Assembly: GCA_026983955.1 (NCBI GenBank)
Contig: JALSTB010000125.1
Location: forward strand, 1-43,421
From: Melioribacteraceae bacterium
GTDB lineage: Bacteria; Bacteroidota; Ignavibacteria; Ignavibacteriales; Melioribacteraceae
Direction: 5' to 3'
Length of the DNA stretch: 43,421 nucleotides
Shown here: positions 1,347-26,934 of the stretch, in pieces
Layout: the number at the start of each line of letters is the position of its first letter
How positions within the stretch are numbered: position 1 is the first letter of the stretch
Position numbers and translations under genes: made by a program
The notes under the pieces: generated by a model
Database searches by the model: none
What the model was told of the DNA's origin: nothing
What the model saw: the letters and a program-made list of their open reading frames with translations, nothing else

Positions 1347-1352
1347 ATTCAA

Positions 1353-3713
1353 TTAAAATTTTATTTTTACACCCAAACTCGGAATAACCGGAAGCATGCT
1401 TGTTTTGTCCACAGTTTGAATTATTTTATTGTTTTCAAATTTTTCTTCGTAATCAATGAACCAAACATTATGCCGGTTGCCAAGGTTAAAAACTTGAAGA
1501 TACGGAATCAGTTTCCAATTACCGTAATCTATTTCGTAACTCAAACTTAAATCGAGACGGATATACGGAGGCAGCCGGAAGCCGTTAATTTCGCCGGGAT
1601 ATAAATTATAAGCCGGGTCTTGTTTCCCTTCCTTGAACGGAATATCGCTCCAATCCGGAAAAATAGTTGCATAATAAGCCGAGTTGGGTACGGTAATCGG
1701 TTGCCCGCTGGTATAAACAAAACTTAAACCGAGTTTCCAGCTTTTGTCGTACCGCAACGCTTTTCCAAACCAATTACCGGAAAATAAGTTATTAAGGTCG
1801 AAGTTCAAAACTACATTTACAATGTGCGTTCTGTCGTGCCGTGGCGGAAACTTTTTGCCTTGATTAATCCTTGGAAAAGTATATTCCGTTCGCGAGAGTG
1901 AATAAGCTATCCAACCATTGAAGGGTCCTTCTTCTTTTCTTAATAGAAATTCAACTCCGTAAGAAATTCCGTTGCCGCCGATAAATAAATTTTTGGTTGT
2001 GTTGTAAATGCTGTTGCCGTTGTTATCGTAAGCATCCGGTTCGGCTTCCGTATTGAATACTTGGTTGAAGACGAAAATGTTTTTGTAATTCTTATAATAT
2101 GCTTCTGTTGTAAATTCAATTTGAGCACCAAGGTTTTTCTGGAAACCGAAAATCAGATGGTTTGCCGATGAAACATCGGTATATTTGTTTGCCGTTACCC
2201 AAACCGACGAGAAAAACAAGCGCGGAATTCTATCCAAATATTGATGGTACATTCCCGCAGCAAATTTAATATTTGTAGTTTCAGAAGTACGGTATTTTAA
2301 ACTAAAACGCGGTGATAAATTAGTAAATGATTTATCCGAATTAAAATAATTAATTCTTAAACCGGTTTCAATTTCGGTCAGCACGTCGGGCTTCCAAACA
2401 CCGCTTAAATAAACTGTTGAATATTGCCGGCGGTTGTTTATATCAACTCTTCCTTCGTCCCAATTTTGAGTGTATAACAGATATAAAAATTTTTGCTCGA
2501 ACCCAAGCTTGAGATTAAAATTATTCAAATAAAAATAATTAAAAGAACCCTTAAGCGATAAATCGGTCAATTCGTTCCGCTCAACAAAATTGAGAATTTT
2601 GGATAAATTAAAATCGGAACGGAAACGGCTTGAAGTAATCCAAAAATTTCCGAAAAGTTTTTTGCCGAAAATGTGTTTCCAATTTACGCTGGCGGTTGTG
2701 TTGCCCCAACTGTAAAGAAATCCGAATGAATCTTTTACGTTTTTATCGAGCTTGAAATCCAAATCGTCGAATCCGTTGAAAAAACTAACCGATAGTTTGT
2801 CATTAAGTCCGAGATCAAAAAACGCTTTCAAATTAGCATCGTAAAAATAATAGTCCGGAATTTCCTTAATCACTTTGGCATAAACTTGATCGATATATGT
2901 TCTGCGGAACGAACCGGAAACGGAACCGAAATCACCCAGTGGAATTTGCAGTGTTGTTGTTGCCGAAAGCAAACTGATATTAACAATTCCTTCGAAGTGA
3001 TTTCTGTTTCCGTCGAGATTCGTAACGTTTAACACGGAAGATAATCTGCCGCCGTATTCAGCCCCGAAACCTCCTTTTGAAAACTCAACTTTTTTTATTG
3101 CGTTTGTGTTGAAGGTAGAAAAAATACCGAAAGCATGTTCCGGATTGTAAACATCGGTACCGTCGACCAAATATAAATTTTGGTCGGGTGTGCCGCCACG
3201 TACGTAAAGCGCCGAAGAAAAATCGGAGAGGGAAGTAACTCCGGGCAAAGTTTGCAATGTACGCAGCAAATCCGATTCAACCATTTGCGGAATACTTTTA
3301 ATTTGTTGAGGGGTAAGTTCTATTTTGGATACCGGAGCGGAAAATAAACGCTTACTCAAGTTAGCCGATTTATCCGAGACAACAACTTCTTCGGTAACTA
3401 TTCCTGCCGGTTCGAGATAAATTTCCAAAATTTTGCTTGACTCTTTACCAATGTTTACATCAATAACTTTTGTTTCATATCCTATGTAACTTACGGTAAG
3501 CTTGTATTTGCCTTCGGGCACTGAAGGAATCACAAAATAACCCGTGCTGTTTGTCGCTGCGCCCAACGAAAGTTTCTCTATAAATACATTTGCTCCAACC
3601 AAGCTTTCGCCGGACTCTTTGTCTTTTATATACCCTGAAACCGAAAAGAATTTTTTCTGTGCGGATACATTTATAAAAAGTATGATTAGAAAAAATATTA
3701 TCTTAAATTTCAT
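1353..3713 (-). CDS. TonB-dependent receptor with N-terminal carboxypeptidase-regulatory-like domain
   Basis: From ATG 3713 the protein has a clean signal peptide (MKFKIIFFLIILFINVSA, cleavage before QKKFF). Residues about 22-95 form a CarboxypepD_reg-like beta-sandwich (SGYIKDKESGESLVGANVF ... GYFVIPSVPEGKYKLTVSYI). Residues about 120-235 are the plug (YVRGGTPDQNLYLVDGTDVY, GGFGAEYGGRLSSVLNV), and the rest is a 22-strand type barrel ending in a terminal Phe (GVKIKF). It imports an unknown ligand across the outer membrane using TonB energy. The frame is open upstream to a TTG at 3755, but those residues would sit ahead of the signal peptide and inside a likely promoter, so 3713 (or ATG 3731) is the start. 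It forms an operon with the DUF4249 lipoprotein. Confidence 0.9.
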   Translation of the reverse strand: MKFKIIFFLIILFINVSAQKKFFSVSGYIKDKESGESLVGANVFIEKLSLGAATNSTGYFVIPSVPEGKYKLTVSYIGYETKVIDVNIGKESSKILEIYLEPAGIVTEEVVVSDKSANLSKRLFSAPVSKIELTPQQIKSIPQMVESDLLRTLQTLPGVTSLSDFSSALYVRGGTPDQNLYLVDGTDVYNPEHAFGIFSTFNTNAIKKVEFSKGGFGAEYGGRLSSVLNVTNLDGNRNHFEGIVNISLLSATTTLQIPLGDFGSVSGSFRRTYIDQVYAKVIKEIPDYYFYDANLKAFFDLGLNDKLSVSFFNGFDDLDFKLDKNVKDSFGFLYSWGNTTASVNWKHIFGKKLFGNFWITSSRFRSDFNLSKILNFVERNELTDLSLKGSFNYFYLNNFNLKLGFEQKFLYLLYTQNWDEGRVDINNRRQYSTVYLSGVWKPDVLTEIETGLRINYFNSDKSFTNLSPRFSLKYRTSETTNIKFAAGMYHQYLDRIPRLFFSSVWVTANKYTDVSSANHLIFGFQKNLGAQIEFTTEAYYKNYKNIFVFNQVFNTEAEPDAYDNNGNSIYNTTKNLFIGGNGISYGVEFLLRKEEGPFNGWIAYSLSRTEYTFPRINQGKKFPPRHDRTHIVNVVLNFDLNNLFSGNWFGKALRYDKSWKLGLSFVYTSGQPITVPNSAYYATIFPDWSDIPFKEGKQDPAYNLYPGEINGFRLPPYIRLDLSLSYEIDYGNWKLIPYLQVFNLGNRHNVWFIDYEEKFENNKIIQTVDKTSMLPVIPSLGVKIKF

Positions 3714-3752
3714 ATTCACGTTTTTTTGCATAGGACGAACTTTTAATTTCAG

Positions 3753-3783
3753 CAAAAGTATAAATATTTTGATTCAGTTGAAA
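3753..3783 (-). promoter_or_regulatory. Putative Bacteroidota-type promoter for the TonB receptor operon
   Basis: Read on the minus strand, TACTTTTG at 3760-3753 matches the -7 element TAnnTTTG, and TTTC at 3783-3780 is one base off the -33 TTTG, with a 19-base spacer. Transcription would begin near 3747, giving a leader of about 35 bases to ATG 3713. Seen in sequence; activity is inferred. Confidence 0.4.
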
Positions 3784-9010: not shown

Positions 9011-10636
9011 TTAAATTTCTATTATTTGATGTTCAAATTTATTGATTTTTAATTCTGTGAAAATCAATTTCAGTAAATCCAGTCCGTATTTATTCGCAAA
9101 ATAAAAGAAATTCAATTCACGCTCTTGCAATTCACTATTCGGAAAGACGGCATTGCGTAATTTTGTAATTTGACGGAAACTGTCTTTATATTGAATTTCT
9201 TGGGCTTTCCCTGCTTTATTTTTCAGTACTTCGAGATGTGAAAAAATCTTTTCCCTTGTTTTCAGAATGGAATCCTTTAAATTCGGATCAATTGCGAACA
9301 GATGCTCACGCAGTCTGTCCAATGTCAAATCGATTTCTTTTTTCGAATGTTCGAACAAGTCTTCCAAATTCAAATCGCCGACTTCGGCAAGAATTTTTTT
9401 ATTCAACAATTCTTCACCTATAAAAACATCAATGTAATTTAAGTTATACTTATCGATTAATTTCTTTATGTTCTTCTCTATAATTGTAAGCGAAGAACGT
9501 GGATAAATAACCGGACTGGGTATGTTAAAGAAATCGTATAACGGCATAACTTGCGCAAAGTAGCTAACTTCACTCGGTCCGCCAACGTATGCTGCCGTCG
9601 GGAAAAGATAATCTTGACAAATGGGTCTGAGCATTACATTCGGACTGAAATCTTCCGGCTGTTCGTACAAACGGTTTAATACATCTTCTTCGGTGAATTT
9701 TCTGCGTTTACCTTTTAATCTGAATTTATCATCGACCGGCTCAAGCAAATATCTGCCGTCTTTTTCGCGGATGAAAATATTAACCGGTTGGATTTTAACT
9801 TGTGCATGATAAATATCCTCCAGTTCCGCACTTACCTCAAGCAAATCACGTGTGTGAATTCTATAATCCAGTATTTCTTTTTCAAAAACCGGTATTAATA
9901 AATTTTTTACTTTTGCATCCGTCGGATCGAATATTATAAGTCCGTACTCATCGAATAGTTCGAAAATCATGTTTCCGAAAGCTTCGGTGAAAGTTTTACC
10001 CTTAGCAAAATTCCGGCTCAACAAATCTTTGATTGTACCGGTAAATTCGGTTGACCGCATGTTTTCGAAAAAGTCATCCAAAGTTTTTTGAATATTCGAA
10101 TTGAATTTCAGACTGCCGACCGGTCCTCTGTTTACATCAACAGGTTTTCCGTCGCTGTATGTAACTGTTACAATTTTGTTTCCGGGATTCAGAATTTTGA
10201 TATAGCTTACTTCTTCAAAATCGTGGTCGTCTCCGGCTAGCCAGAAAACGGGAACGAATTGATATTGCTCGTACTTTTCGTTCAAGTGTTGTGAAAGTTT
10301 AATTGCGGTAATTATTTTGTAAAATGTGTAAAGAGGTCCGCCGAAAATACCAAGTTGCTGACCCGTAAAAATTGCAAAAGCTTTTCCGTCTTTAAGATTA
10401 CGAATATTTGCTTTTGTCAGTTTCGAAGGTTTTCTCTCTTTGTATTGCTCCTCGATTATTCCGGAAATTTCGGCTGCAGGGTAATTATCCCGTTCCGTTA
10501 TTGATTTTAATGTCGATTCGAAATCGGCTTCATTGCGGAAATTTTTATTGTAGTACTTCCTGACATTTTCAAATTCGTACAGGTAATCCAAAAACAAATT
10601 TTGATGATTGGGCAGATCGGAAAAATTTATGAACAT
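9011..10636 (-). CDS. bshC: Bacillithiol biosynthesis cysteine-adding enzyme
   Basis: The 541-residue protein has the BshC signature segments FTGQQLGIFGGPLYTFYK (90-107) and PVFWLAGDDHDFEEV (129-143), then a Rossmann-like core and a long helical, coiled-coil C-terminal part (about 420-510). BshC adds cysteine to glucosaminyl-malate, the last step of bacillithiol synthesis; Chlorobaculum relatives use N-methyl-bacillithiol. bshA and bshB are not in the window. ATG 10636 has a good AAGGGG ribosome site just upstream, stronger than most here. It is convergent with the cytochrome gene (16 bases apart) and divergent from the outer-membrane-type gene at 10800. Confidence 0.93.
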   Translation of the reverse strand: MFINFSDLPNHQNLFLDYLYEFENVRKYYNKNFRNEADFESTLKSITERDNYPAAEISGIIEEQYKERKPSKLTKANIRNLKDGKAFAIFTGQQLGIFGGPLYTFYKIITAIKLSQHLNEKYEQYQFVPVFWLAGDDHDFEEVSYIKILNPGNKIVTVTYSDGKPVDVNRGPVGSLKFNSNIQKTLDDFFENMRSTEFTGTIKDLLSRNFAKGKTFTEAFGNMIFELFDEYGLIIFDPTDAKVKNLLIPVFEKEILDYRIHTRDLLEVSAELEDIYHAQVKIQPVNIFIREKDGRYLLEPVDDKFRLKGKRRKFTEEDVLNRLYEQPEDFSPNVMLRPICQDYLFPTAAYVGGPSEVSYFAQVMPLYDFFNIPSPVIYPRSSLTIIEKNIKKLIDKYNLNYIDVFIGEELLNKKILAEVGDLNLEDLFEHSKKEIDLTLDRLREHLFAIDPNLKDSILKTREKIFSHLEVLKNKAGKAQEIQYKDSFRQITKLRNAVFPNSELQERELNFFYFANKYGLDLLKLIFTELKINKFEHQIIEI

Positions 10637-10799: not shown

Positions 10800-11663
10800 A
10801 TGAAAAATTTTATAACGGGTTTGCTAATCTTTCTAACATCAACATTTGTAGGTGCCCAGAGTTATCAAACTGAATTCATGCCCAGCAAAATTTCTTTTCT
10901 GCCGTTCCGTGCAAATTTCGAAGAAGCAAGAATAGGCGTGTTGTATTACGCTGAAAATGCAAATCTAAAACTCGATTTGGGTGGCACGACTGAAATTCTC
11001 GGATTCAGTTTTCCGCAGAAAAATCTCAGAATTACACTGGGAATTGAATTCATGGCTTATGCGCTTTCAACAAGTTATTCGGGTAGAAGATTGCAAATAG
11101 ACGCAGTGGACGGATTCTTCGGCGGTCACGCATCATTTGTTAAATTTGCCGCGAACGGGAAATATCTTGCAAGGTTCAGAATTATTCACAACAGCGCTCA
11201 CCTGGTCGATGGTCACTACGACGAGGAGCTGAAACGATGGATGAATAATGATAAGCCGATTCCTTTTACACGGGATTTCGGAGAGCTTACTTTGGCAAGG
11301 GAACAAGCTATCGGGGAATATCAAATAAAATATTATGGTGGAATCGCTTATGCAACACTTGTAAGACCTTCAACATTAAAAAAATACTCTTTTTCCACGG
11401 GTATAGAGGTTCATTCCAATAAAATATATTCAAATATATTTAATCAAGAATTAAACATATTTTTTGCTTATAATTTTGTTTTAAAAGGAATGCCGGTCTA
11501 TACGGGAAACAATCACTTTATGGTTGGGGCTAAATTCGGTGAGTGGTACGGGAAAGGATTGGTGCTTTATCTTTCGTACTTCTCAGGAAAAAACGTATTC
11601 AGTGAATATTATAAAAATTCGATTAAGCGGTTTGGTATAGGATTTTATGTAGATATATTTTAA
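10800..11663 (+). CDS. Outer-membrane-type protein, copy A of a paralogous pair
   Basis: A signal peptide (MKNFITGLLIFLTSTFVGA, cleavage before QSYQ) precedes 267 residues of alternating, aromatic-rich beta strands typical of a small outer-membrane barrel, ending in Phe. A conspicuous motif sits in the middle: HNSAHLVDGHYDEE at 130-143. The copy at 17546 carries the same motif (HISAHFVDGHYDGR), the same YTGNN segment and the same 'SGK...EYY' tail, so the two are paralogs. The H-x-S-x-H-x-x-D pattern is reminiscent of DUF1207-type proteins, a weak match from memory. AGAGGA at 10789-10794 serves ATG 10800. It opens the cluster; the role may be envelope modification or export, not proven. Confidence 0.72.
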   Translation: MKNFITGLLIFLTSTFVGAQSYQTEFMPSKISFLPFRANFEEARIGVLYYAENANLKLDLGGTTEILGFSFPQKNLRITLGIEFMAYALSTSYSGRRLQIDAVDGFFGGHASFVKFAANGKYLARFRIIHNSAHLVDGHYDEELKRWMNNDKPIPFTRDFGELTLAREQAIGEYQIKYYGGIAYATLVRPSTLKKYSFSTGIEVHSNKIYSNIFNQELNIFFAYNFVLKGMPVYTGNNHFMVGAKFGEWYGKGLVLYLSYFSGKNVFSEYYKNSIKRFGIGFYVDIF

Positions 11664-11717
11664 CCAGAATTGTATATTTTCTTTCGTACTTGATTTATTT
11701 AGTGACGAAAGGCCTTT

Positions 11718-12731
11718 TTGGAAATAAATCCTTTAAAATATCTTACCGCAAAGCGATTACTGAACATTGTGAAGGTGGTAGCCTCTTATCAACTTTCAAA
11801 TTTTCTTCACAAGCCGGTTGTGTGGGGAATGCCGGTTTCATATTCAATTGAACCCACTAACCATTGTAATTTGAAATGTCCGGAATGCCCCTCGGGTTTG
11901 GGAGCGCTTACACGTCCCTTGGGTCTGATGAAATTCCAAACTTTCAAGAATATTGTCGATCAAATAAAAGATACCGGTTTTTATATCCAGCTCTATTTTC
12001 AGGGTGAGCCGTTTATTAACAAAGAATTGTTTTCGATGATTGATTATGCGCGCGAAAATAAAATTTACACTTCAATCAGCACAAACGGGATACTCTTGAA
12101 AAAAGAAACGGTAAATAAAATTTTGGAATCACCGCCCGATAAAATTATTTTTTCAATTGACGGTTTGGATGAAGAAACCTATCAAAATTACAGATATGGC
12201 GGAACATTCAAAGAGGCCGACGAGGGATTGCGTTTGTTATTAAGTGAAAAGAAAAAAAGGAAATTAAAAATTCCGTACGTCGAATTCCAGTTTATCGTTA
12301 TGAAGCAAAACGAACATCAGGTTGATGAAGTTAAACGGTACGGTAAAAAAATAGGAGTGGACAAAGTAACTCTGAAAACAATGCAAGTTACTTCATTAGA
12401 AAATGCAAAGTATTTTTTGCCGGAGAACCCGCAATATTCACGTTATAAAATTGAAAACGGGAAATTGATATTGAAGAATAAATTGAAAAACAAATGCTTT
12501 GCTTTGTGGCGGACTTCGGTAATTACTTGGGACGGGAGGGTGGTCCCTTGCTGTTTCGATAAAGATGCTAAATACGAATTAGGAAAACTTAACGGAAAAA
12601 ATTTTGAAGAGATTTGGAAAAACGGAAATTTTCATTTATTTAGAAAACAAATATTAAAAAACAGGAAAGCTGTTGATATTTGCAGAAATTGTACGGAAGG
12701 TATGAAAATTAATATATTTGAAATCGAATGA
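11718..12731 (+). CDS. Radical SAM protein with SPASM-like C-terminal cysteines
   Basis: The radical SAM cluster motif CNLKCPEC gives CxxxCxxC at Cys50, Cys54 and Cys57, preceded by about 45 residues (SYSIEPTNHC). A TIM-barrel core follows (YFQGEPFINKELF, SISTNGILL, FSIDGLDEETYQNYR). The C-terminus has further cysteines, in CFALWRTS, WDGRVVPCCFD and ICRNCTEG, that fit a SPASM domain with auxiliary iron-sulfur clusters. The start is TTG at 11718: an in-frame stop lies at 11703, the next ATG would cut into the core, and AAAGG at 11708-11712 is well placed. Substrate unknown. Its stop overlaps the next gene as ATGA. It could act on a lipid or glycan intermediate, or a peptide. Confidence 0.85.
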   Translation: MEINPLKYLTAKRLLNIVKVVASYQLSNFLHKPVVWGMPVSYSIEPTNHCNLKCPECPSGLGALTRPLGLMKFQTFKNIVDQIKDTGFYIQLYFQGEPFINKELFSMIDYARENKIYTSISTNGILLKKETVNKILESPPDKIIFSIDGLDEETYQNYRYGGTFKEADEGLRLLLSEKKKRKLKIPYVEFQFIVMKQNEHQVDEVKRYGKKIGVDKVTLKTMQVTSLENAKYFLPENPQYSRYKIENGKLILKNKLKNKCFALWRTSVITWDGRVVPCCFDKDAKYELGKLNGKNFEEIWKNGNFHLFRKQILKNRKAVDICRNCTEGMKINIFEIE

Positions 12732-13705
12732 TGGGAACGGTAGCAGCAAAAATATATTCGGGGATAAAAAAGCGACGCAATTTGTTGATTAATATTGCCA
12801 AATTTACAATTGCGGTAACGTTAATTTACTTTTTGGTTACGCACCTAAATCCTTCCCAAATATATTCCGATATGAAAAAGGCGAATAAATTATTGATTTC
12901 ATTTGCCCTTTTGCTTTTGGGCTTGAATGTTTATCTGCAATATGTAAAATGGGAACTAATTTGCAAACAGGTTTTAGGTGTTACGGATAAAAGGAAAATA
13001 TGGCTCTCCCTTTTTTACGGTTTTAGCGCGGGAATATCAACACCAATGCGGTTAGGTGAATATGTAGGCAGGGCGATTCCGTTCAAAGATAAAAATTTAT
13101 TGGAAATTACTTTTGCAACTTTTGTGGATAAAATCTTTCCCATCTTCATGGTCTTGTTTATCGGTTCGGTTGCAACGATTATTTTTCTTCATTATTATTT
13201 TAACGTTGCGGTTTATGTTACCGTTTCCCTTTTTCTTGTAATTTTTATTTCCCTTTATCTCTTATTGTTGATCTTCAGCGATTCCGATTTTTGGGATTCT
13301 TATCTTTACAAAAAAGTTTCAAATATTAAAATTTTTAATAAATATATTGAAAAATTTCAAATATTAAAAAAAGTAAATAAAGTCACTCTCCGGAAGGTAA
13401 CCGTTTATTCCTTTCTGTTCTATCTGACGTATATATTTCAATTTGCAATTTTGTTCTATGCATTTTCCGGTTCATTCGATTTTGTAAATTATATATGGAT
13501 TGGAAGCATGGTAATGTTCGCAAAAAAATTCATTTCTTTTCTTACCTTTGGCGATTTGGGAATCAGGGAAGCCACGGCGGTTTATTTTGCCGGATTGATA
13601 GGCATTTCAGAAACGGCGGCTTTTAATGCATCTATAATTATATTTGTGATTAATCTGGTTTTGCCCTCGTTGGTCGGACTTTTTCTATTTCTCAGGAGAA
13701 ACTGA
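12728..13705 (+). CDS. Flippase-like integral membrane protein (UPF0104 / LPG-synthase TM family)
   Basis: The 325-residue protein has about eight hydrophobic segments (for example near 25-38, 53-70, 128-150, 155-180, 225-245 and 295-320). The family's two landmark segments are visible: STPMRLGEYVGRAIP at about 100-114 and FLTFGDLGIREATAVYF at about 270-286. Relatives such as AglD-neighbour and MprF membrane halves move lipid-linked substrates across the cytoplasmic membrane. Here the soluble transferase half of MprF is missing, so this is a stand-alone membrane unit. ATG 12728 overlaps the radical SAM stop (ATGA) and the stop abuts the GT2 start, implying a shared product. Transport of a glycolipid intermediate is inferred. 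Confidence 0.82.
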   Translation: MMGTVAAKIYSGIKKRRNLLINIAKFTIAVTLIYFLVTHLNPSQIYSDMKKANKLLISFALLLLGLNVYLQYVKWELICKQVLGVTDKRKIWLSLFYGFSAGISTPMRLGEYVGRAIPFKDKNLLEITFATFVDKIFPIFMVLFIGSVATIIFLHYYFNVAVYVTVSLFLVIFISLYLLLLIFSDSDFWDSYLYKKVSNIKIFNKYIEKFQILKKVNKVTLRKVTVYSFLFYLTYIFQFAILFYAFSGSFDFVNYIWIGSMVMFAKKFISFLTFGDLGIREATAVYFAGLIGISETAAFNASIIIFVINLVLPSLVGLFLFLRRN

Positions 13706-14842
13706 ATGCTTACCGCTGCATCGATTGCCTTCGGTATTCTTTTTTTGCATTACGGTTATTTCCTTTTTACGGTTTACAAAGGATTGAACCGTTTAACCCG
13801 TTTTCCGGAAAAAGCGGAATCAAAAAAATATTTCGTAAGTGTGATTGTACCGTTCCGGAATGAGGAAAATGAAATCCTAAACAGTCTGAAAAGTATTGAA
13901 AATCAGAATTACGACGAAAATTTTTTTGAAGTAATTTATGTTGATGATAGTTCAACCGACAATTCCTTGAAAATTCTCAGGGGAAACATTAACCGGAAAA
14001 ATATTAAAGTTATCGAACATAACGACAACTCACAATCACGCGCTCACAAAAAAAAGGTAATAGAGCATGCCATTGAAAAATCGCAAGGTGAAATAATTGT
14101 TACCACCGATGCGGATTGCACTCATGGCAACGACTGGTTGACTTCGATGGTAAATTGTTTTGATGAAGAAACAGGTTTTGTATCCGGACCCGTGGAATTT
14201 CTCCCGGGTGAAAGTTTTTTTGAAAAACTGCAAGCATTGGAATTTGCTGGTTTAATCATAACCGGTGCAGGATTAATTGGAGCCGGAAGGCCGGCAATTT
14301 GCAACGCGGCTAATTTGGCTTTCCGGAAAAGCGCGTTTTACGATGTTGGCGGATATTCCGGTAATCTGAATCTCTCTTCCGGCGATGATGAGTTTTTAAT
14401 GCAAAAAATTCATGCGGATACAAATTACAAAGTGAAATTTTGTGCCGACAAGAGAGCAAAAGTTTTTACAAAACCTGCTCCAGATTTAACGGGTTTTTAT
14501 CAACAACGGAAACGTTGGGCAAGCAAAGGCTTGTTTTATAAAAATAAAAAATTGGTAATTTCTCTGATTCTCATATTTTTGTTCTACTTCGGTTTGTTCT
14601 TGTTTCCTTTATTTGCAATGTTAATGAACGGCAAATTCTGGCTGTTGTTTGCTGCAGGGTTTGTTTTGAAAATTGTTACTGAATTCATAGTAATGAATAA
14701 AGGAATTAAAATTTTATACAACACAAAAATGCTGAAATATTTTCCGGCGGCTGAAATATTTCATATTCCGTATATCGTGATTGCCTCACTCTCCGGGTTA
14801 AAGGGAAATTTCGAATGGAAAGGGAGAGAACTTTCAAGATGA
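13706..14842 (+). CDS. Family 2 glycosyltransferase with C-terminal membrane segments (copy A)
   Basis: A first membrane segment (residues 2-22) is followed by a GT2 domain: SVIVPFRNEENEI (about 46-58), VIYVDDSSTDNS (about 73-84), TTDADC (about 133-138, metal-binding DxD), GDDEF (about 226-230) and QQRKRW (the QxxRW product-site motif, about 262-267). At least two hydrophobic helices follow (ISLILIFLFYFGLFLFPLFA). The plan is that of processive or lipid-linked membrane glycosyltransferases working on nucleotide sugars at the cytoplasmic face. It begins on the base after the upstream stop and ends in an ATGA overlap with the deacetylase. It is paralogous to the GT2 at 15468. Confidence 0.88.
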   Translation: MLTAASIAFGILFLHYGYFLFTVYKGLNRLTRFPEKAESKKYFVSVIVPFRNEENEILNSLKSIENQNYDENFFEVIYVDDSSTDNSLKILRGNINRKNIKVIEHNDNSQSRAHKKKVIEHAIEKSQGEIIVTTDADCTHGNDWLTSMVNCFDEETGFVSGPVEFLPGESFFEKLQALEFAGLIITGAGLIGAGRPAICNAANLAFRKSAFYDVGGYSGNLNLSSGDDEFLMQKIHADTNYKVKFCADKRAKVFTKPAPDLTGFYQQRKRWASKGLFYKNKKLVISLILIFLFYFGLFLFPLFAMLMNGKFWLLFAAGFVLKIVTEFIVMNKGIKILYNTKMLKYFPAAEIFHIPYIVIASLSGLKGNFEWKGRELSR

Positions 14843-15480
14843 TGAGAAAATATAAATATTCACCACCGTTTATTGTAAAGAAGATGTTCGACCGTTTTAT
14901 TTGGGAATCGAAAACCCGGAAAATTCTTTTTACTTTTGATGACGGACCGAATCCGTTTACAACCGAGAGAATTTTAACGGAGTTATCCGGATATGATATC
15001 AAAGCCGTCTTCTTTTGTGTGGGTGAAAATTTAAAAAAACATGAGTCCCTTGTAAAATATATTCTTGAAGAAGGTCACACACTTGCAAATCATACATTGC
15101 AACATTCCAAACTAACACAACTTAAAAAAATAGAAATTAAACAAAATATAATTGAAGTGAATGAATTCGTTGAAAATTCATTCGGGATAAATATGGAATA
15201 TTTCCGCCCGCCTTACGGTAGATTTACCGCAAGTTTGAATAAAATTTTAGTTGACTTGGGAATGCAAAATGTGATGTGGTCACTGCTTACTTACGATTAC
15301 AAAAATGATATAAATATTGTTAAATTTGCGCTTAACAATTATTTAAGGAACAATTCCATAATAGTTTTTCACGACAGTAAAAAATCGGGGAAAATAATTA
15401 TCGATTCGATCCGGTATACAGTTGATGCAATAAAAAAGAAAGGTTATTCAATCGGGACGCCTGCTGAATGCTTGAAATAA
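14839..15480 (+). CDS. Polysaccharide deacetylase (NodB homology domain)
   Basis: The 213-residue protein is a complete NodB domain: FTFDDGPNPFTT at 31-42 (Asp34 catalytic base, Asp35 metal), HTLANHTLQHSKL at 80-92 (metal His85 and His89), RPPYGRF at 123-129 and IVFHDS at 165-170 (His168). No signal peptide is seen, so it probably works in the cytoplasm or at the inner membrane face on a lipid- or nucleotide-linked N-acetyl sugar made by the neighbouring GT2 proteins. ATG 14839 overlaps the GT2 stop (ATGATGA); ATG 14815 would be upstream inside that gene. It overlaps the next gene by 13 bases. Confidence 0.9.
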   Translation: MMRKYKYSPPFIVKKMFDRFIWESKTRKILFTFDDGPNPFTTERILTELSGYDIKAVFFCVGENLKKHESLVKYILEEGHTLANHTLQHSKLTQLKKIEIKQNIIEVNEFVENSFGINMEYFRPPYGRFTASLNKILVDLGMQNVMWSLLTYDYKNDINIVKFALNNYLRNNSIIVFHDSKKSGKIIIDSIRYTVDAIKKKGYSIGTPAECLK

Positions 15481-16559
15481 TTTTCATCATAATTTTTTCA
15501 CTCTACTTTATTCAACTAATTGTGTTCACAATCGGGGCAAGCAAAAAATTCCCCAAATCGAGTGGGAGCGGTTTGCCCGGTATTACCGTTATTGTTGCCG
15601 CCAGAAACGAAGAGCGCAACATAGAGAAGTGTATGATTTCATTAAACAATTTGATTTACCCACGTGAAAAGCTTGAAATTATTATTGTCGATGATCATTC
15701 TACGGATCGTACCGGGGAAATTATAGACCGTTTCATTTCCGGGAAACCGTTTTTCAAAAAGATAATCCCGCAAAAACAGATTGGAAAAGTAAAAGGTAAA
15801 GCCAATGCAATTGCCAATGCAATTGAAGAGGCGAAAGGGGAAATAATTTTAACAACTGATGCCGACTGCGTTGTTTCGCCCACATGGGCAAAAACCATAG
15901 CATCGTATTATACCGAAAACGTTGCCATGGTTTGCGGATACACGAATCAAAAGTTTAATAATTTGTTTACCGGAATGCAGGATGTTGATTTTATATATCT
16001 TTTAACGGTGGCTAGCGGGGCAATGAATTTGGGCAAACCGTTAAGTGCAATCGGCAACAATATGTCATACAGAAAAGATGTTTATCACGAAGTCGGCGGT
16101 TATGAGTCAATTCCGTTTTCCGTAACGGAAGATTTTAGATTGCTAATGGCAATTCATAAATTGAAGAAATACAAAATAATTTATCCTACCGATGCCGGTT
16201 CGCTTGTAACTTCGGAACCTTGTCCCGATGCCAAAACACTTTATTGGCAGAAGAAACGTTGGGGTGTCGGTGGTCTCGATAGCGATTTTGGCGGATATTT
16301 AGTTACCTCCACAGCGTGGTTAACGCATTTGGGAATGTTGCTGGCACCCTTTCTTGTTCCGGCTTCAGCTTTGTACTTAATTGGATTCAAAATTATTGCC
16401 GATTATTTTTTCTTGTGGTCAGTGTACAAAAAACTTAACTTGCGTTTGCCGGTTAAAAATTTCTTGGCATTTGAAATATATTTTATATTTTATGTTTTAA
16501 TTTTACCGATTTTACTTATCTTCACCAAAGAAGTTAAGTGGAAAGGCAGGAAATATTGA
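15468..16559 (+). CDS. Family 2 glycosyltransferase with C-terminal membrane segments (copy B)
   Basis: It has the same plan as copy A: an N-terminal membrane segment (1-22), GITVIVAARNEERNIEKCM (about 38-56), IIIVDDHSTDRT (about 70-81), LTTDADCVV (about 127-135), TEDFRLL (about 221-227), then QKKRWGVGG (QxxRW, about 259-267), and several hydrophobic helices at the end. The two GTs share DADC, the glycine-tyrosine 'VGGY' segment and the membrane tail, so they look like an ancient duplication acting in turn on one glycan. It starts 13 bases before the deacetylase stop; its stop overlaps the start of the second radical SAM gene by one base. Confidence 0.87.
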   Translation: MLEIIFIIIFSLYFIQLIVFTIGASKKFPKSSGSGLPGITVIVAARNEERNIEKCMISLNNLIYPREKLEIIIVDDHSTDRTGEIIDRFISGKPFFKKIIPQKQIGKVKGKANAIANAIEEAKGEIILTTDADCVVSPTWAKTIASYYTENVAMVCGYTNQKFNNLFTGMQDVDFIYLLTVASGAMNLGKPLSAIGNNMSYRKDVYHEVGGYESIPFSVTEDFRLLMAIHKLKKYKIIYPTDAGSLVTSEPCPDAKTLYWQKKRWGVGGLDSDFGGYLVTSTAWLTHLGMLLAPFLVPASALYLIGFKIIADYFFLWSVYKKLNLRLPVKNFLAFEIYFIFYVLILPILLIFTKEVKWKGRKY

Positions 16560-17542
16560 TGTTACTACTTTGTAATTATTATGTAACTTACCGTTGTAAT
16601 GCATATTGCGAATTTTGTCACTTCGCAGTGCATGAAAATTTTAAGAATACTCCGCATGCATCGTTAGGAGATTTCAAAAGTAACGTAAAACAACTTGCGG
16701 AGCTCGGAGTTAAGTTTATCGATTTGACCGGCGGGGAACCGTTGCTAAATCCGCATATCGCCGAAATGGCCGGTTATGCCAGAAGTTTAAAAATGCAAAC
16801 GAGCATAACCACCAATACTCTTCTGTATCCAAAATTTGCCGATGCCCTGAAGGGAAAAGTTAATTTGTTGCATTTTTCTTTGGATTCGCCTGACCGTGAA
16901 GAACATGATAAAATCCGGAAAGTTAAATGTTACGATAAAGTTTTCGAGAGTATTGAAATTGCAAAATCGATTGGGGAGTTTCCCGATATTTTATTCACCG
17001 TTACGAACGAAACGTACAGAAAATTACCCCGTATGCACGAGATAGCAATTAAACACGACTTGATTTTATTGGTCAATCCGGTTTTTTCTTATTTTGGAAA
17101 TCCCGGCTTAAACGATGAAGCACTTGATTTTATTGAAGAATACGTCGACGGGAAAAGTAACATATACTTGAATAAAGGCTTTATTAAACTTAGAAGGAAT
17201 GGCGGAAACGATATTGATAAACCGACTTGCAAAGCTGTATCCCGGGTGATCGTAATTTCGCCGGAAAATGAAATAATTCTGCCGTGTTATCATTTCGGTA
17301 AGGAAACAATAAAAATAGATAAACCAATCAAGGAAATCCGCAATTCCGGAAAAATCAAATATTATAAAAGTATGGAAGGCAAATTTGATTTTTGCCAAGG
17401 TTGCACGGTAAATTGTTATTTTGAACCGTCGTTCGCTTTCCCTTTTAACCAATATGGAATTGCATCGTTGCCCAGCAAATTTAAATACGGATATACGAAA
17501 TTGATTAAACAAAAAATAAAAAAAATTGTAAATGGAAATTAA
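16559..17542 (+). CDS. Second radical SAM protein of the cluster
   Basis: From ATG 16559 the CxxxCxxC motif comes very early (CNAYCEFC, Cys13, Cys17, Cys20), so almost no N-terminal extension exists, unlike the first radical SAM protein. The core shows DLTGGEPLLNPHI, SITTNTLL and LLHFSLDSPDREEHD. C-terminal cysteines (PTCKAV, ILPCYHFG, CQGCTVNCYF) suggest at least one auxiliary cluster. ATG 16559 overlaps the GT2 stop (TGATG) and has AGG eight bases upstream; ATG 16538 lies inside the upstream gene. Reaction unknown. Hopanoid-type radical SAM enzymes (HpnH, HpnJ) are one comparison, since hpnCDE is elsewhere in this window, but nothing specific ties them. Confidence 0.83.
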   Translation: MLLLCNYYVTYRCNAYCEFCHFAVHENFKNTPHASLGDFKSNVKQLAELGVKFIDLTGGEPLLNPHIAEMAGYARSLKMQTSITTNTLLYPKFADALKGKVNLLHFSLDSPDREEHDKIRKVKCYDKVFESIEIAKSIGEFPDILFTVTNETYRKLPRMHEIAIKHDLILLVNPVFSYFGNPGLNDEALDFIEEYVDGKSNIYLNKGFIKLRRNGGNDIDKPTCKAVSRVIVISPENEIILPCYHFGKETIKIDKPIKEIRNSGKIKYYKSMEGKFDFCQGCTVNCYFEPSFAFPFNQYGIASLPSKFKYGYTKLIKQKIKKIVNGN

Positions 17543-17545
17543 TGT

Positions 17546-18370
17546 ATGAGAAAAGTGCTGATTCTATTGTTGTTACTAAGCCCGTTATTGTTTGCACAAA
17601 GTAAAATCGAATACTTTCCCGACAGTTTAAGTATCTCGCCGTTCTCAGCAAAAATGATTGAACCTAAAATTGGCTTTTCTTTCCAGACAGGTGCAAATGA
17701 ATTGGAATTGAATATAGGCAACTCTCTGGATTTAGTTCATTTCAGAAAAGGGAAGTCCGGTATCTTCAGTATCGGAGCCGATTTTTTCACTTTTACTTTA
17801 TTGCGTGGAGAAGCGAATTTTCATTTCCCCGTTGATGCAGTGGATTATTTGTTCGGTATGAATTTCGGCTACAGGACCAAATATGATAATTACGAGTTGG
17901 GTTTGCGTTTCCGGCTCAGCCACATAAGTGCGCACTTTGTTGATGGACATTATGACGGAAGAAACCGGAGTTGGCGTGATAATTTGAACCCGCGGGTTTA
18001 CAGCAGGGAATTTGTGGAAGTTTTGCCTTTTTATAAAGCCGGTTCATTCAGAAGTTATGCCGGGTTTACTTACATTTTTTCAACCGATCCGGAAAACATC
18101 GGCAAAGACAATTTTCACTTAGGATTTGAATATTTTTATCCTGAATTAATATTAAATCTTTTTCATTTTTATTTCGCATACGATTTGAAATTAATTCACC
18201 TTGATAAATATACGGGAAACAACTCGGTGCAAGCCGGTTTGCGCATTGGTAAAACATCGGGGAAGGGATTTTCGGTTTATTACCAATATTATTCCGGCAA
18301 AAGCCATCACGGTGAATATTACAATTTTAATAAAAGTTATTCCGCAATAGGTTTTAATTTGGAACTTTAA
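17546..18370 (+). CDS. Outer-membrane-type protein, copy B of the paralogous pair
   Basis: A signal peptide (MRKVLILLLLLSPLLFA, cleavage before QSK) precedes a beta-rich body of about 257 residues. The central motif is HISAHFVDGHYD (126-137), matching HNSAHLVDGHYD in copy A at 10800. Further shared features are the 'VDAVDYLFG / IDAVDGFFG' strand, YTGNN, and the 'KGFSVYYQYYSGK...GEYY' / 'KGLVLYLSYFSGK...SEYY' tail. It starts four bases after the second radical SAM gene and is followed two bases later by the protease gene. The invariant His/Asp set hints at metal binding or enzyme activity rather than a plain pore, but this is inference. Confidence 0.72.
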   Translation: MRKVLILLLLLSPLLFAQSKIEYFPDSLSISPFSAKMIEPKIGFSFQTGANELELNIGNSLDLVHFRKGKSGIFSIGADFFTFTLLRGEANFHFPVDAVDYLFGMNFGYRTKYDNYELGLRFRLSHISAHFVDGHYDGRNRSWRDNLNPRVYSREFVEVLPFYKAGSFRSYAGFTYIFSTDPENIGKDNFHLGFEYFYPELILNLFHFYFAYDLKLIHLDKYTGNNSVQAGLRIGKTSGKGFSVYYQYYSGKSHHGEYYNFNKSYSAIGFNLEL

Positions 18371-18372
18371 TT

Positions 18373-19371
18373 ATGGAACAATACCCGTATCAACAAACAT
18401 ACTCCACGCATTCACTTCGGAAAAAAAAGAAAAACAGGGTTGCCATTCATATTATTTTATTCTTAATCACATTTGTTACTACGCTGATTGCCGGAACCGA
18501 ATGGACAACCGGAACAATGGGTCCGTATTCCCTTGAAGCGCTTCGGCGCGGTTTGCCGTATGCACTTTCAATTTTATTTATTTTAACATTTCATGAATTC
18601 GGTCATTATTTTGCAGCTATGTATCACAAGGTTAAAGCCACATTGCCGTATTATATTCCCTTTCCGCCTATACCCGGCTTTTTTAATTTCGGAACGATGG
18701 GAGCGGTTATCCGTACCAAGTCACCCGTTCCCGACAATATTGCAATGTTCGATATTGGCGTGGCCGGACCTGTAAGTGGATTTGTTGCATGCTTGATAGT
18801 TTTAATTTACGGTTTTTCGAATCTGCCCGGGGTTGAGTATATATTGCAGATACATCCGGATTATTTTTCGCCGACATACGGCGAGGGTGCCGTAACTCTT
18901 GAATTCGGTAATACATTGCTCTTCTCATTTTTAAGGGAGTTGCTTACTAAACCGGGTCAGTTCGTTCCACCGATGACTGAGGTTTATCATTATCCTTATT
19001 TGATGACGGGGTGGTTCGGCTTGTTTATTACTGCAATGAATATGATTCCGGTCGGGCAGTTGGACGGCGGGCATGTTGTTTACAGTATGTTCGGAGCCAA
19101 AACACACGAAGCAATTGCAAGTGTTTCGATGTTGATATTGGTTTTTCTCGGGTTCATCGGTTTACTTGATTCCACACTTGAATTGAATCTGCACTTCGGG
19201 TGGGGTGGTTGGCTTTTTTGGGCTTTTATTTTGTACTTCATTATAAAAGTGAAGCACCCGCCGGTACGTAACTTCTATCCGCTCGACAAAAAACGGATGG
19301 CGCTGGGTTATTTCGCTTTGTTTATTTTAATTATATCGTTTTCGCCAACGCCTTTCATTATTACTTTTTGA
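18373..19371 (+). CDS. M50-family intramembrane zinc metalloprotease (site-2-protease type)
   Basis: The 332-residue polytopic protein has the zinc motif HEFGH at 74-78 (Glu75 catalytic), a second conserved stretch FGTMGAVIRTKSPVP at 106-120, and the third ligand in NMIPVGQLDGGH at 223-234 (Asp231). About six membrane helices surround these. There is no PDZ domain, which resembles the short bacterial/plastid EGY-like subgroup rather than RseP. Such enzymes cut transmembrane substrates such as anti-sigma factors; none is next to it. It is two bases after copy B of the outer-membrane pair, so co-transcription is likely, and a 220-base gap follows. Confidence 0.87.
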   Translation: MEQYPYQQTYSTHSLRKKKKNRVAIHIILFLITFVTTLIAGTEWTTGTMGPYSLEALRRGLPYALSILFILTFHEFGHYFAAMYHKVKATLPYYIPFPPIPGFFNFGTMGAVIRTKSPVPDNIAMFDIGVAGPVSGFVACLIVLIYGFSNLPGVEYILQIHPDYFSPTYGEGAVTLEFGNTLLFSFLRELLTKPGQFVPPMTEVYHYPYLMTGWFGLFITAMNMIPVGQLDGGHVVYSMFGAKTHEAIASVSMLILVFLGFIGLLDSTLELNLHFGWGGWLFWAFILYFIIKVKHPPVRNFYPLDKKRMALGYFALFILIISFSPTPFIITF

Positions 19372-19591: not shown

Positions 19592-20425
19592 ATGCTGAAA
19601 AACAAAATTATTTATCCGCTTGTTTTAATGTCTCTCATGATGTTTTTCATAGCTTCGTGTGAAAAAACACCCACCGAAGTTATTGAGCAGCCTCTAATTC
19701 AATTTGTTGTAACAAGTATTTCGGCTCCCGGAACTTATATTTTATCCGGCACGGATTCTTCTTTTGTTACTTCGGTTACCATAGAAAATCCGGAGAATAT
19801 TTCCGGAGTGTGGTTTAATATATCCACGGCAGACGGAATATCCAGAATTGTATCCGGTGTGAAAATGTTGGACAACGGAGATAAAACGAACGGTGATGAA
19901 ATTGCTGGCGACGGAATTTATTCCGGTAAAACGTTTTTGGGCAAAGGAGTAAAAAGTGGTAAATATCAAATCGATTTTTTCGTTTCCGATAAAATTAATC
20001 CCGAACCGGCAAATGTGCACAAAATAGGAATTAAATATTTTGAAGTTAAAGGCGGGGCGGAAAACTATCCGCCTGAAATAATAAATGTGTCGATTCCCGA
20101 TACTGTAATGAAGGAAGAAAAATTCACATTCTCCGTTGAAGTTAAAGATTCGAACGGACTGCAAGATATTCGTGAAGTTTATTATGAATTATTTAATCCG
20201 AACGGCGAGCAGGTGGTTAATAGCAAGGGCATATCACGCTTCCCTTTGTTTGATGACGGTGATACAAATGCAAACGGAGACCAAGCCGCCGGTGATGGCG
20301 TTTATACGGTGTTCTTAACTATACCGGCAAATCAACCAACAGGATTATGGGAGTTCAAGTTTACCGCCGTCGATAAATCGGATGAAAAAAGTAACAAAGT
20401 TTCACATTCGGTGTATGTTAAATGA
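19592..20425 (+). CDS. Surface lipoprotein with two 'choice-of-anchor X'-like repeats
   Basis: A lipoprotein signal ends in FFIASC (Cys23). The 277-residue product then has two beta-sandwich repeats, each ending in an acidic, probably calcium-binding loop: DNGDKTNGDEIAGDGIY at 94-110 and DDGDTNANGDQAAGDGVY at 221-238. This D-x-G-D...GDG-x-Y pattern is seen in extracellular repeats named choice-of-anchor X. It probably sits on the outer membrane or cell surface. Its stop overlaps the start of the propeller gene (ATGA), and two PorV-like genes follow, so the four likely make one surface module. No close functional assignment is possible. ATG 19592 has no clear Shine-Dalgarno site. Confidence 0.75.
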   Translation: MLKNKIIYPLVLMSLMMFFIASCEKTPTEVIEQPLIQFVVTSISAPGTYILSGTDSSFVTSVTIENPENISGVWFNISTADGISRIVSGVKMLDNGDKTNGDEIAGDGIYSGKTFLGKGVKSGKYQIDFFVSDKINPEPANVHKIGIKYFEVKGGAENYPPEIINVSIPDTVMKEEKFTFSVEVKDSNGLQDIREVYYELFNPNGEQVVNSKGISRFPLFDDGDTNANGDQAAGDGVYTVFLTIPANQPTGLWEFKFTAVDKSDEKSNKVSHSVYVK

Positions 20426-24827: not shown

Positions 24828-25793
24828 ATGGAAATTATCAAATATACCGAGGAATGGAAAGACAAGTGGGATGAGTTTGTTTTAAACTCGAGTAACGGAA
24901 CGATGTTCCACATGCAAAAGTTTTTCGATTATCACGAGCCCGGGAAATTTCAATTCAATCATCTGATATTTTTGGAAAAGGGGAAAATTGTTGCATTGCT
25001 TCCCGGTAGCATTGTTGAAAACGGTACCGTCTTCGAATCTCCCATTGGTGCAAGCTACGGTTCCATTGTAGTAAAAGATATCAAATTCCGTAAAGCCCTT
25101 GAAATTGTTGATGTATTGTTGGATTGGGGTAAAAGGAACGGTATTAAAGAATTCATTTTAACTTCCGCTCCAATGATTTACGAAACATATCCCAATCAAA
25201 ATCTCGATTTTGCAATGTTGTGGCGGGGCTTTAAATATCAATTGCATTATATTTCCAGCGCAATAAAACTTGACAAGAAAATAGATATAATCTCAAGGTT
25301 TTCACCGACAATCCGCCGTAATATCAGAAAAACATTTAAGAACCCGGATTTGCGCGTTGAAGTTAACGAAAGGTATGATCACTTTTATCCGATTCTATTG
25401 AAAAACAAAGCGAAGCACAATGTTAAACCGACTCACTCTTATGAAGATTTGTTAAAACTTAAACAATTACTGCCCGACCGCCTTAAACTCTTTATGGTTT
25501 ACTATAAAGATAAACCGATTGGCGGTTCGCTAATGTTTTACCCGAATAAAAACGTTGCTCTTTGCTTTTATAATATGTTGCTCTATGAGTATGCACAACA
25601 TAAACCCATTCAACGTGTAATGTATGAAGTTGTGAAAGATTCCACCGAAAGGGGATTTGCTTATGTCGATATCGGTGTTTCACAAGATACCTCCGCCGAT
25701 AATCCTATGACGCCCAGTATCAGTCTGATCGATTTTAAAGAAAAGTTCGATGCAAAATCGATTATGAGAAATACGTTGCATTATAAATATTAA
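24828..25793 (+). CDS. FemAB/GNAT-fold acyltransferase-like protein
   Basis: The 321-residue cytosolic protein has the arrangement of FemAB-like double-GNAT proteins: an N-terminal half with GTMFHMQKFFDYHEPGKF and LLPGSIVENG, a positively charged linker (SPTIRRNIRKTFKN), and a C-terminal half with PIGGSLMFYPNKNVALCFY and 'GFAYVDIGVSQD'. Such proteins transfer amino-acid or acyl groups and are frequent in surface-polysaccharide loci. The two glycosyltransferases just downstream (12 and 9 bases apart) point the same way. The donor and acceptor are unknown. ATG 24828 matches the position after a likely promoter. Confidence 0.72.
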   Translation: MEIIKYTEEWKDKWDEFVLNSSNGTMFHMQKFFDYHEPGKFQFNHLIFLEKGKIVALLPGSIVENGTVFESPIGASYGSIVVKDIKFRKALEIVDVLLDWGKRNGIKEFILTSAPMIYETYPNQNLDFAMLWRGFKYQLHYISSAIKLDKKIDIISRFSPTIRRNIRKTFKNPDLRVEVNERYDHFYPILLKNKAKHNVKPTHSYEDLLKLKQLLPDRLKLFMVYYKDKPIGGSLMFYPNKNVALCFYNMLLYEYAQHKPIQRVMYEVVKDSTERGFAYVDIGVSQDTSADNPMTPSISLIDFKEKFDAKSIMRNTLHYKY

Positions 25794-25804
25794 ATAATGA
25801 TCTT

Positions 25805-26926: not shown

Positions 26927-26934
26927 TATTTAAA

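What the first reader, a model, noticed from the sequence alone, without database searches (positions are those of the whole stretch)
10800..18370. Envelope-biosynthesis cluster bracketed by two paralogous outer-membrane-type proteins
Eight plus-strand genes run OMP-A, radical SAM, flippase-like membrane protein, GT2, NodB deacetylase, GT2, radical SAM, OMP-B. From the first radical SAM gene on, neighbours overlap or nearly touch, so the enzymes are coupled. Both GT2 genes look paralogous, as do the two outer-membrane proteins at the ends. The order suggests synthesis of a modified, partly de-N-acetylated lipid-linked glycan that is flipped and then handled at the outer membrane. I know no named pathway with this set.
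Basis: partly seen in the sequence, partly recalled or inferred. Interest (0 to 1): 0.75.

Follow-up and report, generated by a model that had tools for sequence, protein, structure and literature searches.

The report
Aminosugar-lipid gene cluster with lipase-like barrels
A conserved block of genes in a little-studied bacterial group looks able to attach a sugar to a membrane lipid, convert it to an aminosugar and modify it by radical chemistry, and it carries two outer-membrane barrel proteins, so far called 'unknown function', that look like lipid-cutting enzymes.

Summary
At 10800-18370 there are eight plus-strand genes in the stated order: DUF1207 barrel, radical SAM (SPASM/twitch), flippase-like protein, GT2, NodB deacetylase, GT2, radical SAM, DUF1207 barrel. 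The operon runs on into an M50 protease 2 bp downstream. The organism is a Melioribacteraceae/Ignavibacteriales MAG.

It is not chance. Across the order it forms two recurring modules: [OmpA]-[rSAM1]-flippase-GT2 beside BshC, and deacetylase-GT2-rSAM2-OmpB-M50-lipoprotein. The window has them fused. A flippase-GT2-deacetylase-GT2 core recurs in other classes of the phylum.

My best reading is cytosolic synthesis of a lipid-linked aminosugar (GlcNAc-type transfer, de-N-acetylation, radical SAM modification), flipped outward. This is the logic of hopanoid HpnI-HpnK-HpnJ, but the genome has no hopene cyclase and the equivalog cut-offs tested fail.

The main correction concerns the barrels. Both are predicted as 12-stranded barrels whose closest solved structures are all the outer-membrane phospholipase OMPLA. 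They carry an invariant H-x-S-x-H-x-x-D-G motif, with His and Ser on the predicted lipid-facing side. In related lineages the family sits directly after LpxC-LpxA. They are probably outer-membrane lipid hydrolases, and ancient paralogues rather than a local duplication. Substrate and product are untested.

The parts
10800..11663 (+). OmpA: DUF1207 (PF06727) 12-strand outer-membrane barrel, predicted OMPLA-like lipid hydrolase; optional upstream member
   Evidence: Pfam DUF1207 30.3 bits; AF2 pLDDT 89.3, 12 strands; six best PDB matches all OMPLA, Z 17.0-17.6, next 15.5; invariant H-x-S-x-H-x-x-D-G
11718..12731 (+). rSAM1: radical SAM with BtrN-like twitch/SPASM domain (auxiliary-cluster Cys 260, 278, 322, 325); optional
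   Evidence: Radical_SAM + SPASM; best solved relative BtrN, E 3e-18, cysteines aligned; Cys invariant in 12 homologues
12728..13705 (+). Flp: LPG_synthase_TM (PF03706) flippase-like membrane protein
   Evidence: 71.5 bits, cut-off 33.4; at least 6 TM segments; in 45/58 relatives, GT2a next in 36/38
13706..14842 (+). GTa: GT2 with 1 N-terminal and 2 or more C-terminal TM segments; DxD and QxxRW; ends WKGR
   Evidence: Glycos_transf_2 86 bits; full-length but sub-cut-off similarity to HpnI/HpnB
14815..15480 (+). Deac: cytosolic NodB/CE4 deacetylase (start more likely at 14839)
   Evidence: Polysacc_deac_1 106 bits; catalytic/metal residues D30 D31 H81 H85 R119 H174 invariant in 23 homologues (A6 numbering); no TM or signal; best solved relative PgdA, E 5e-31
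15468..16559 (+). GTb: GT2, paralogue of GTa; D, DxD, ED, QKKRW and C-terminal WKxR invariant
   Evidence: Glycos_transf_2 89.9 bits; 24-row alignment; solved relatives include ceramide glucosyltransferase and cellulose synthase
16538..17542 (+). rS2: radical SAM, mostly 66-87% identical across the order, extra C-terminal cysteines (C231, C250, C286, C289, C293)
   Evidence: Radical_SAM 83 bits; 12-row alignment 76% mean identity; 80 loci; best solved relative BlsE, E 8e-17; GTb upstream in 73/75 loci
17546..18370 (+). OmpB: DUF1207 12-strand outer-membrane barrel, predicted OMPLA-like lipid hydrolase; candidate catalytic H126, S128, acidic E155
   Evidence: AF2 pLDDT 93.4; best PDB matches all OMPLA, Z 17.5-18.4, rmsd 3.4, about 210 aa; next 15.8; H126 S128 H130 D133 invariant in 122/122; H126/S128/H130 on the hydrophobic face of strand 5, E/D/N155 on that of strand 6
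18373..19371 (+). M50 site-2-protease-like membrane protein, 2 bp downstream, conserved with the cluster
   Evidence: Peptidase_M50 67.6 bits; downstream of rS2 in 60/62 loci
19592..20425 (+). putative lipoprotein conserved after M50; membership uncertain
   Evidence: No Pfam family; N-terminal hydrophobic segment and lipobox-like IASC; present in 54/57 loci

Best explanation
The cluster makes and manages an aminosugar-bearing envelope lipid. GTb (with or after GTa) transfers a HexNAc, most simply GlcNAc, to a membrane lipid on the cytosolic face. The soluble NodB enzyme removes the acetyl group. The twitch/SPASM-type radical SAM enzymes oxidise or otherwise rework the aminosugar where they are present (they are optional). 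The flippase-like protein moves the lipid to the periplasmic leaflet, and it reaches the outer membrane. There the DUF1207 barrels act as OMPLA-like hydrolases, using lipid-facing His126-Ser128 plus an acidic residue (E155), on this lipid, on lipid A or on mislocalised phospholipids. Shown: gene content, synteny, catalytic-residue conservation, predicted fold. Inferred: substrates, order of steps, flipping, hydrolysis. Confidence: a cytosolic lipid-linked aminosugar pathway about 0.6; barrels are lipid hydrolases about 0.55; both as one pathway about 0.4.
For: Synteny: deacetylase-GTb-rS2-OmpB-M50 in almost all rS2 loci, and the Flp-GTa pair in 36/38. A Flp-GTa-Deac-GTb core recurs outside the order in f4, f10, f19 and f37, with rS2 directly after GTb in f19. 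All NodB catalytic positions are invariant, with no export signal. Both GT2s keep DxD/QxxRW and show full-length though sub-threshold similarity to HpnI. rSAM1 aligns with BtrN over the twitch cysteines; BtrN oxidises an aminocyclitol (PMC9012708). rSAM2's best solved relative is the sugar-acting BlsE. The same chemical sequence is established for hopanoids: HpnI adds GlcNAc, HpnK deacetylates, the radical SAM HpnJ finishes (PMC12583986). Barrels: two separate models both rank six OMPLA entries first; HxSxHxxDG is invariant in 122/122; H126/S128/H130 lie on the hydrophobic, lipid-facing side of strand 5 and E/D/N155 on that of strand 6; OMPLA's His142-Ser144-Asn156 triad is on the barrel exterior (PMC5043575). 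In other families the gene directly follows LpxC-LpxA (L079, L081, L083, L084). The genome has LpxC and so probably makes lipid A.
Against: Profile-profile comparison of DUF1207 with OMPLA is not significant, so the OMPLA link rests on predicted fold plus motif; no coordinates were available to superpose the residues. Bacterial barrels resemble each other, and unrelated barrels reach Z 15-16. rSAM1, rSAM2 and OmpA are each missing from many clusters, so they are not essential to the core product. DUF1207 also occurs alone in many genomes, so it need not act on this product. The acceptor lipid and the donor sugar are unknown. 'Flippase-like' is only a family name here. The loci share ancestry.
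Confidence: 0.42

Rival explanations
1. The cluster decorates lipid A or the LPS core: the GT2/deacetylase pair makes a polyprenyl-phosphate-linked aminosugar as in the Arn or galactosamine systems, which is flipped and transferred to lipid A, and the DUF1207 barrels trim lipid A acyl chains.
For: GT2 + NodB + flippase is the enzyme set of ArnC/ArnD/ArnEF-type pathways (general knowledge); DUF1207 follows LpxC-LpxA in several families; LpxC is present; LPS-type glycosyltransferases (GT1, GT9) lie at 25.8-28.0 kb in the window.
Against: ArnC model 34 bits against a cut-off of 529; no ArnT-like final transferase in the cluster; the GT2s with C-terminal TM segments look more like direct lipid glycosylators (HpnI, ceramide glucosyltransferase) than polyprenyl-phosphate transferases.
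Confidence: 0.25
2. The cluster makes an exported, partly de-N-acetylated polysaccharide (PNAG/chitin-like), with the barrels as export pores.
For: PgaC/IcaA is the top NCBIfam model for both GT2s (81 and 84 bits), and both keep the processive QxxRW motif.
Against: PgaC cut-off 422 and PgaB cut-off 322 are missed widely; the deacetylase lacks an export signal, whereas PgaB is periplasmic; no PgaA-type porin in the cluster; the 12-strand barrels have a conserved lipid-facing His/Ser that a pore would not need.
Confidence: 0.1
3. The genes are neighbours of an ancestral gene order without one shared pathway: DUF1207 is general outer-membrane housekeeping, and the two modules merely sit together.
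For: Modules are separate in many relatives; DUF1207 is widespread alone; flanking genes (BshC, EPSPS, M50, lipoprotein) are also syntenic.
Against: The enzyme core stays together in other classes where the flanks differ, OmpB included in f10; overlapping starts; two modules with matching enzyme types fused in several families.
Confidence: 0.2
4. A hopanoid-glucosamine or C30-carotenoid glycoside pathway, fed by the squalene genes 20 kb downstream.
For: HpnC, HpnD and HpnE equivalogs above cut-off at 38394-41391; same GT-deacetylase-rSAM logic as HpnI-K-J.
Against: No hopene cyclase by two models in the own genome; no CrtI-family desaturase in the own genome; HpnI cut-off missed.
Confidence: 0.03

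Closest known systems
HpnI-HpnK-HpnJ (bacteriohopanetetrol glucosamine / cyclitol ether synthesis)
   Same: Membrane GT2 adds a HexNAc to a lipid, a deacetylase frees the amine, a radical SAM enzyme acts on the aminosugar; a flippase-like membrane protein (HpnL) is also part of hpn sets.
   Different: No hopene cyclase; deacetylase is NodB/CE4 rather than YdjC type (the latter from general knowledge); rSAM1 carries a twitch/SPASM domain; HpnI, HpnH and HpnL cut-offs missed.
Outer membrane phospholipase A (OMPLA/PldA, PF02253)
   Same: 12-strand barrel of about 275 aa; H-x-S on the lipid-facing side of a mid-barrel strand; closest solved fold for both paralogues.
   Different: Not matched by the PF02253 model; loop after H-x-S longer; acidic E155 instead of Asn156 as likely third residue; extra invariant H130, D133, D100, R123.
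DUF1207 (PF06727)
   Same: Both barrels are members above the gathering score.
   Different: No paper in the library searched mentions the family, so there is no function to compare with.
BtrN and BlsE (sugar/aminocyclitol radical SAM enzymes)
   Same: Closest solved relatives of rSAM1 and rSAM2; rSAM1 shares the four twitch cysteines.
   Different: Soluble small-molecule substrates there; here probably lipid-linked; similarity too low to infer the same reaction.
PgaABCD/IcaABC poly-N-acetylglucosamine system
   Same: GT2 of the PgaC type plus a NodB-fold deacetylase.
   Different: No export signal on the deacetylase, no PgaA/PgaD in the cluster, PgaC and PgaB cut-offs missed.

Membership tests
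DUF1207 (PF06727) | Pfam gathering score 22 bits | tested here: met
   30.3 (OmpA) and 28.1 (OmpB) bits, C-terminal half of the profile
OMPLA (PF02253) | PF02253 profile match | tested here: not met
   No PF02253 hit for either barrel or anywhere in the own genome; hhalign not significant
OMPLA (PF02253) | 12-strand barrel with OMPLA architecture | tested here: met
   Both AF2 models: OMPLA entries take ranks 1-6, Z 17-18.4, above the next barrels at 15.5-15.8
OMPLA (PF02253) | His-x-Ser-...-Asn triad on barrel exterior | tested here: inconclusive
   H-x-S invariant and on the lipid-facing side; third residue would be E/D/N155, position equivalence to Asn156 not superposed
OMPLA (PF02253) | Calcium-dependent phospholipase activity | not testable with these tools
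   Needs purified protein
NodB/CE4 deacetylase | Metal and catalytic residues of the NodB motifs | tested here: met
   TFDDGP, NHTxxxH, RPPxGR and HD motifs; key residues invariant in 23 sequences; PF01522 106 bits
Hopanoid glucosamine pathway (HpnI/K/J) | Squalene-hopene cyclase in the genome | tested here: not met
   TIGR01507 and PF13243 give no match in the own genome
Hopanoid glucosamine pathway (HpnI/K/J) | HpnI equivalog score 310 | tested here: not met
   48.8 and 46.2 bits
Hopanoid glucosamine pathway (HpnI/K/J) | HpnJ radical SAM | tested here: inconclusive
   HpnJ not among the best 25 models shown for either radical SAM; no B12-binding domain found
PNAG (Pga/Ica) | PgaC 422 and PgaB 322 bits | tested here: not met
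   81/84 and 14 bits
Arn lipid A modification | ArnC 529 bits | tested here: not met
   34 bits for GTa; ArnT not searched genome-wide
BtrN-type twitch radical SAM | CxxxCxxC plus four auxiliary-cluster cysteines | tested here: met
   C50/C54/C57 and C260, C278, C322, C325 invariant, aligned with BtrN

The most novel reading that the evidence does not exclude
DUF1207 is an unrecognised family of outer-membrane lipid hydrolases/acyl-editing enzymes across the Bacteroidota, and in Ignavibacteriales it is built into a new pathway that makes a radical-SAM-modified aminosugar membrane lipid, with one barrel paralogue specialised for each pathway module.
Probability: 0.3. Interest if true: 0.75.

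Novelty: new variant of a known kind. Interest (0 to 1): 0.55.

Why it matters
If right, it gives a testable function to a widespread Pfam family of unknown function, one that sits in the lipid A gene order of several lineages. It also predicts an undescribed aminosugar lipid in a bacterial group for which I found no lipid biochemistry. Radical SAM chemistry on lipid-linked sugars is known mainly from hopanoid cyclitol ethers, so a non-hopanoid case would show that the logic evolved or spread separately.

Tried and rejected
Sequence homology DUF1207-OMPLA by hhalign (single E. coli fragment, then 8 OMPLA sequences against 122 DUF1207): not significant. An apparent C-terminal likeness (YSG...YNFN) is therefore not used as proof. 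PDB sequence search with the DUF1207 profile: only apparently spurious hits. Hopanoid reading: rejected, no cyclase. Carotenoid-glycoside reading: rejected for this genome, no CrtI family. PNAG reading: cut-offs missed. Local duplication of the barrels: rejected by the tree. Literature: no held paper mentions DUF1207 or combines four of five cluster terms; lipid data for Ignavibacteria not found. Promoter/terminator scan is close to background and not used. Flippase: no solved relative by sequence.
Full report
What is there. Searches confirm the eight plus-strand ORFs. Pfam assigns them: DUF1207, Radical_SAM+SPASM, LPG_synthase_TM, GT2, NodB deacetylase, GT2, Radical_SAM, DUF1207. An M50 protease follows 2 bp after the last. 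BshC (minus strand, 9011-10636) flanks on the left. Gene junctions overlap or touch from the first radical SAM gene on. The two barrels, the two GT2s and (weakly) the two radical SAM proteins are paralogous pairs. Close relatives are Melioribacteraceae/Ignavibacteriales MAGs.

Is it more than chance. I extracted 40 flippase-anchored loci and 80 rS2-anchored loci with organism names. Counting only loci with room on the contig, rS2 has GTb upstream in 73/75, the deacetylase in 61/65, OmpB downstream in 62/66, M50 in 60/62 and the lipoprotein in 54/57. The flippase has GTa next in 36/38 but rSAM1 in only 11/38 and OmpA in 15/36. Flp and GTa are near rS2 in less than half of the loci (23/52, 22/56). 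So there are two modules, fused in the window, and rSAM1, rSAM2 and OmpA are optional. Phylum-wide searches and neighbourhoods show Flp-GTa-Deac-GTb in other classes. In f19, rS2 follows GTb. In f10, a GT28-type glycosyltransferase and a protein with a PHP-like metal motif (my reading of the sequence, no Pfam hit) stand in the place of rS2, and OmpB follows. These loci are related by descent; I did not correct for phylogeny.

The enzymes. The deacetylase keeps all NodB catalytic residues in 23 homologues and lacks any TM segment or signal peptide, so it probably works in the cytosol. Both GT2s have one N-terminal and two or more C-terminal membrane segments, DxD and QxxRW, and a C-terminal WKGR. 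Their best NCBIfam models are PgaC and others far below cut-off, with full-length alignments to HpnI. Solved relatives of GTb include ceramide glucosyltransferase. rSAM1 aligns with BtrN including all four auxiliary-cluster cysteines; rSAM2's closest solved relative is BlsE. Both of these known enzymes act on sugar-like molecules. The inference is a lipid-linked aminosugar that is then modified by radical chemistry. The sugar, the lipid and the radical reaction are not identified.

The outer-membrane proteins. No paper in the library mentions DUF1207. AlphaFold2 gives confident 12-strand barrels for OmpB (pLDDT 93.4) and OmpA (89.3). In both, the six best PDB matches by VIA-align are OMPLA entries (Z 17.5-18.4 and 17.0-17.6; next 15.8 and 15.5). 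Across 122 sequences from the phylum, H126, S128, H130, D133, G134, R123 and D100 are invariant. On strand 5, the positions in register with H126/S128/H130 further down the strand (118, 120, 122, 124) are hydrophobic (mean Kyte-Doolittle 1.5 to 3.6) while the other face carries R121 and R123; on strand 6, E/D/N155 lies in register with hydrophobic 157 and 159. Conserved polar residues on the lipid-facing side are hard to explain except by catalysis at the membrane surface, and OMPLA's triad lies on the barrel exterior (PMC5043575). Sequence profiles do not connect the two families, so I claim 'works like OMPLA', not membership. In L079, L081, L083 and L084 the DUF1207 gene directly follows LpxC/FabZ and LpxA, which puts the family in lipid A gene order. 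The tree groups OmpA with proteins of families f5 and f14 outside the order (100/100), so OmpA and OmpB are old paralogues.

Known systems. The closest logic is HpnI-HpnK-HpnJ: GlcNAc transfer to bacteriohopanetetrol, deacetylation, radical SAM step (PMC12583986). The own genome lacks hopene cyclase by two models, and the HpnI cut-off fails. PNAG and ArnC models also fail. The genome has LpxC and so probably makes lipid A, which leaves lipid A modification as the main rival.

Verdict. The new points are the two-module structure, the deacetylase without export signal, the sugar-acting radical SAM relatives and, above all, the OMPLA-like reading of DUF1207. The mechanism is inference from anatomy; no activity was shown.

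Noticed in passing
window 38394-41391: HpnC, HpnD and HpnE equivalogs (squalene synthesis) above cut-off in a genome without a detectable hopene cyclase or CrtI-family desaturase: the use of the squalene is unexplained.
   Followed up: partly
L079, L081, L083, L084 (L090 with one gene between): DUF1207 barrel gene directly downstream of LpxC/FabZ-LpxA in several families of the same class.
   Followed up: yes
L082, L085, L209, L211: In other families the cluster carries a roughly 500-545-aa protein without Pfam match but with a PHP-like HTHS...TDHS...DD motif, next to or near a GT28-like glycosyltransferase in f10.
   Followed up: partly
window 9011-10636 and L195, L198, L199: BshC (bacillithiol) flanks the flippase-GT2 module in Ignavibacteriales and lies near it again in family f19, perhaps old gene order.
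   Followed up: no
window 24828-27972: FemAB/GNAT-like, GT1 and GT9 (heptosyltransferase) genes resembling an LPS-core cluster.
   Followed up: no
L175: An rS2 homologue, 59% identical, on a contig labelled Ectothiorhodospiraceae MAG NAT122; possible mis-binning or transfer.
   Followed up: no
L092, L093 (family f24): Single DUF1207 genes occur in many genomes of two genera of family f24 with no cluster; in L092 next to a carbamoyltransferase gene.
   Followed up: no
L097 (G007): A true PF02253 OMPLA occurs in one relative that also has the cluster, so the two families coexist.
   Followed up: partly
window 477-3755 (-): TonB-dependent receptor-like protein followed by a DUF4249 protein, a common Bacteroidota pairing.
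   Followed up: no
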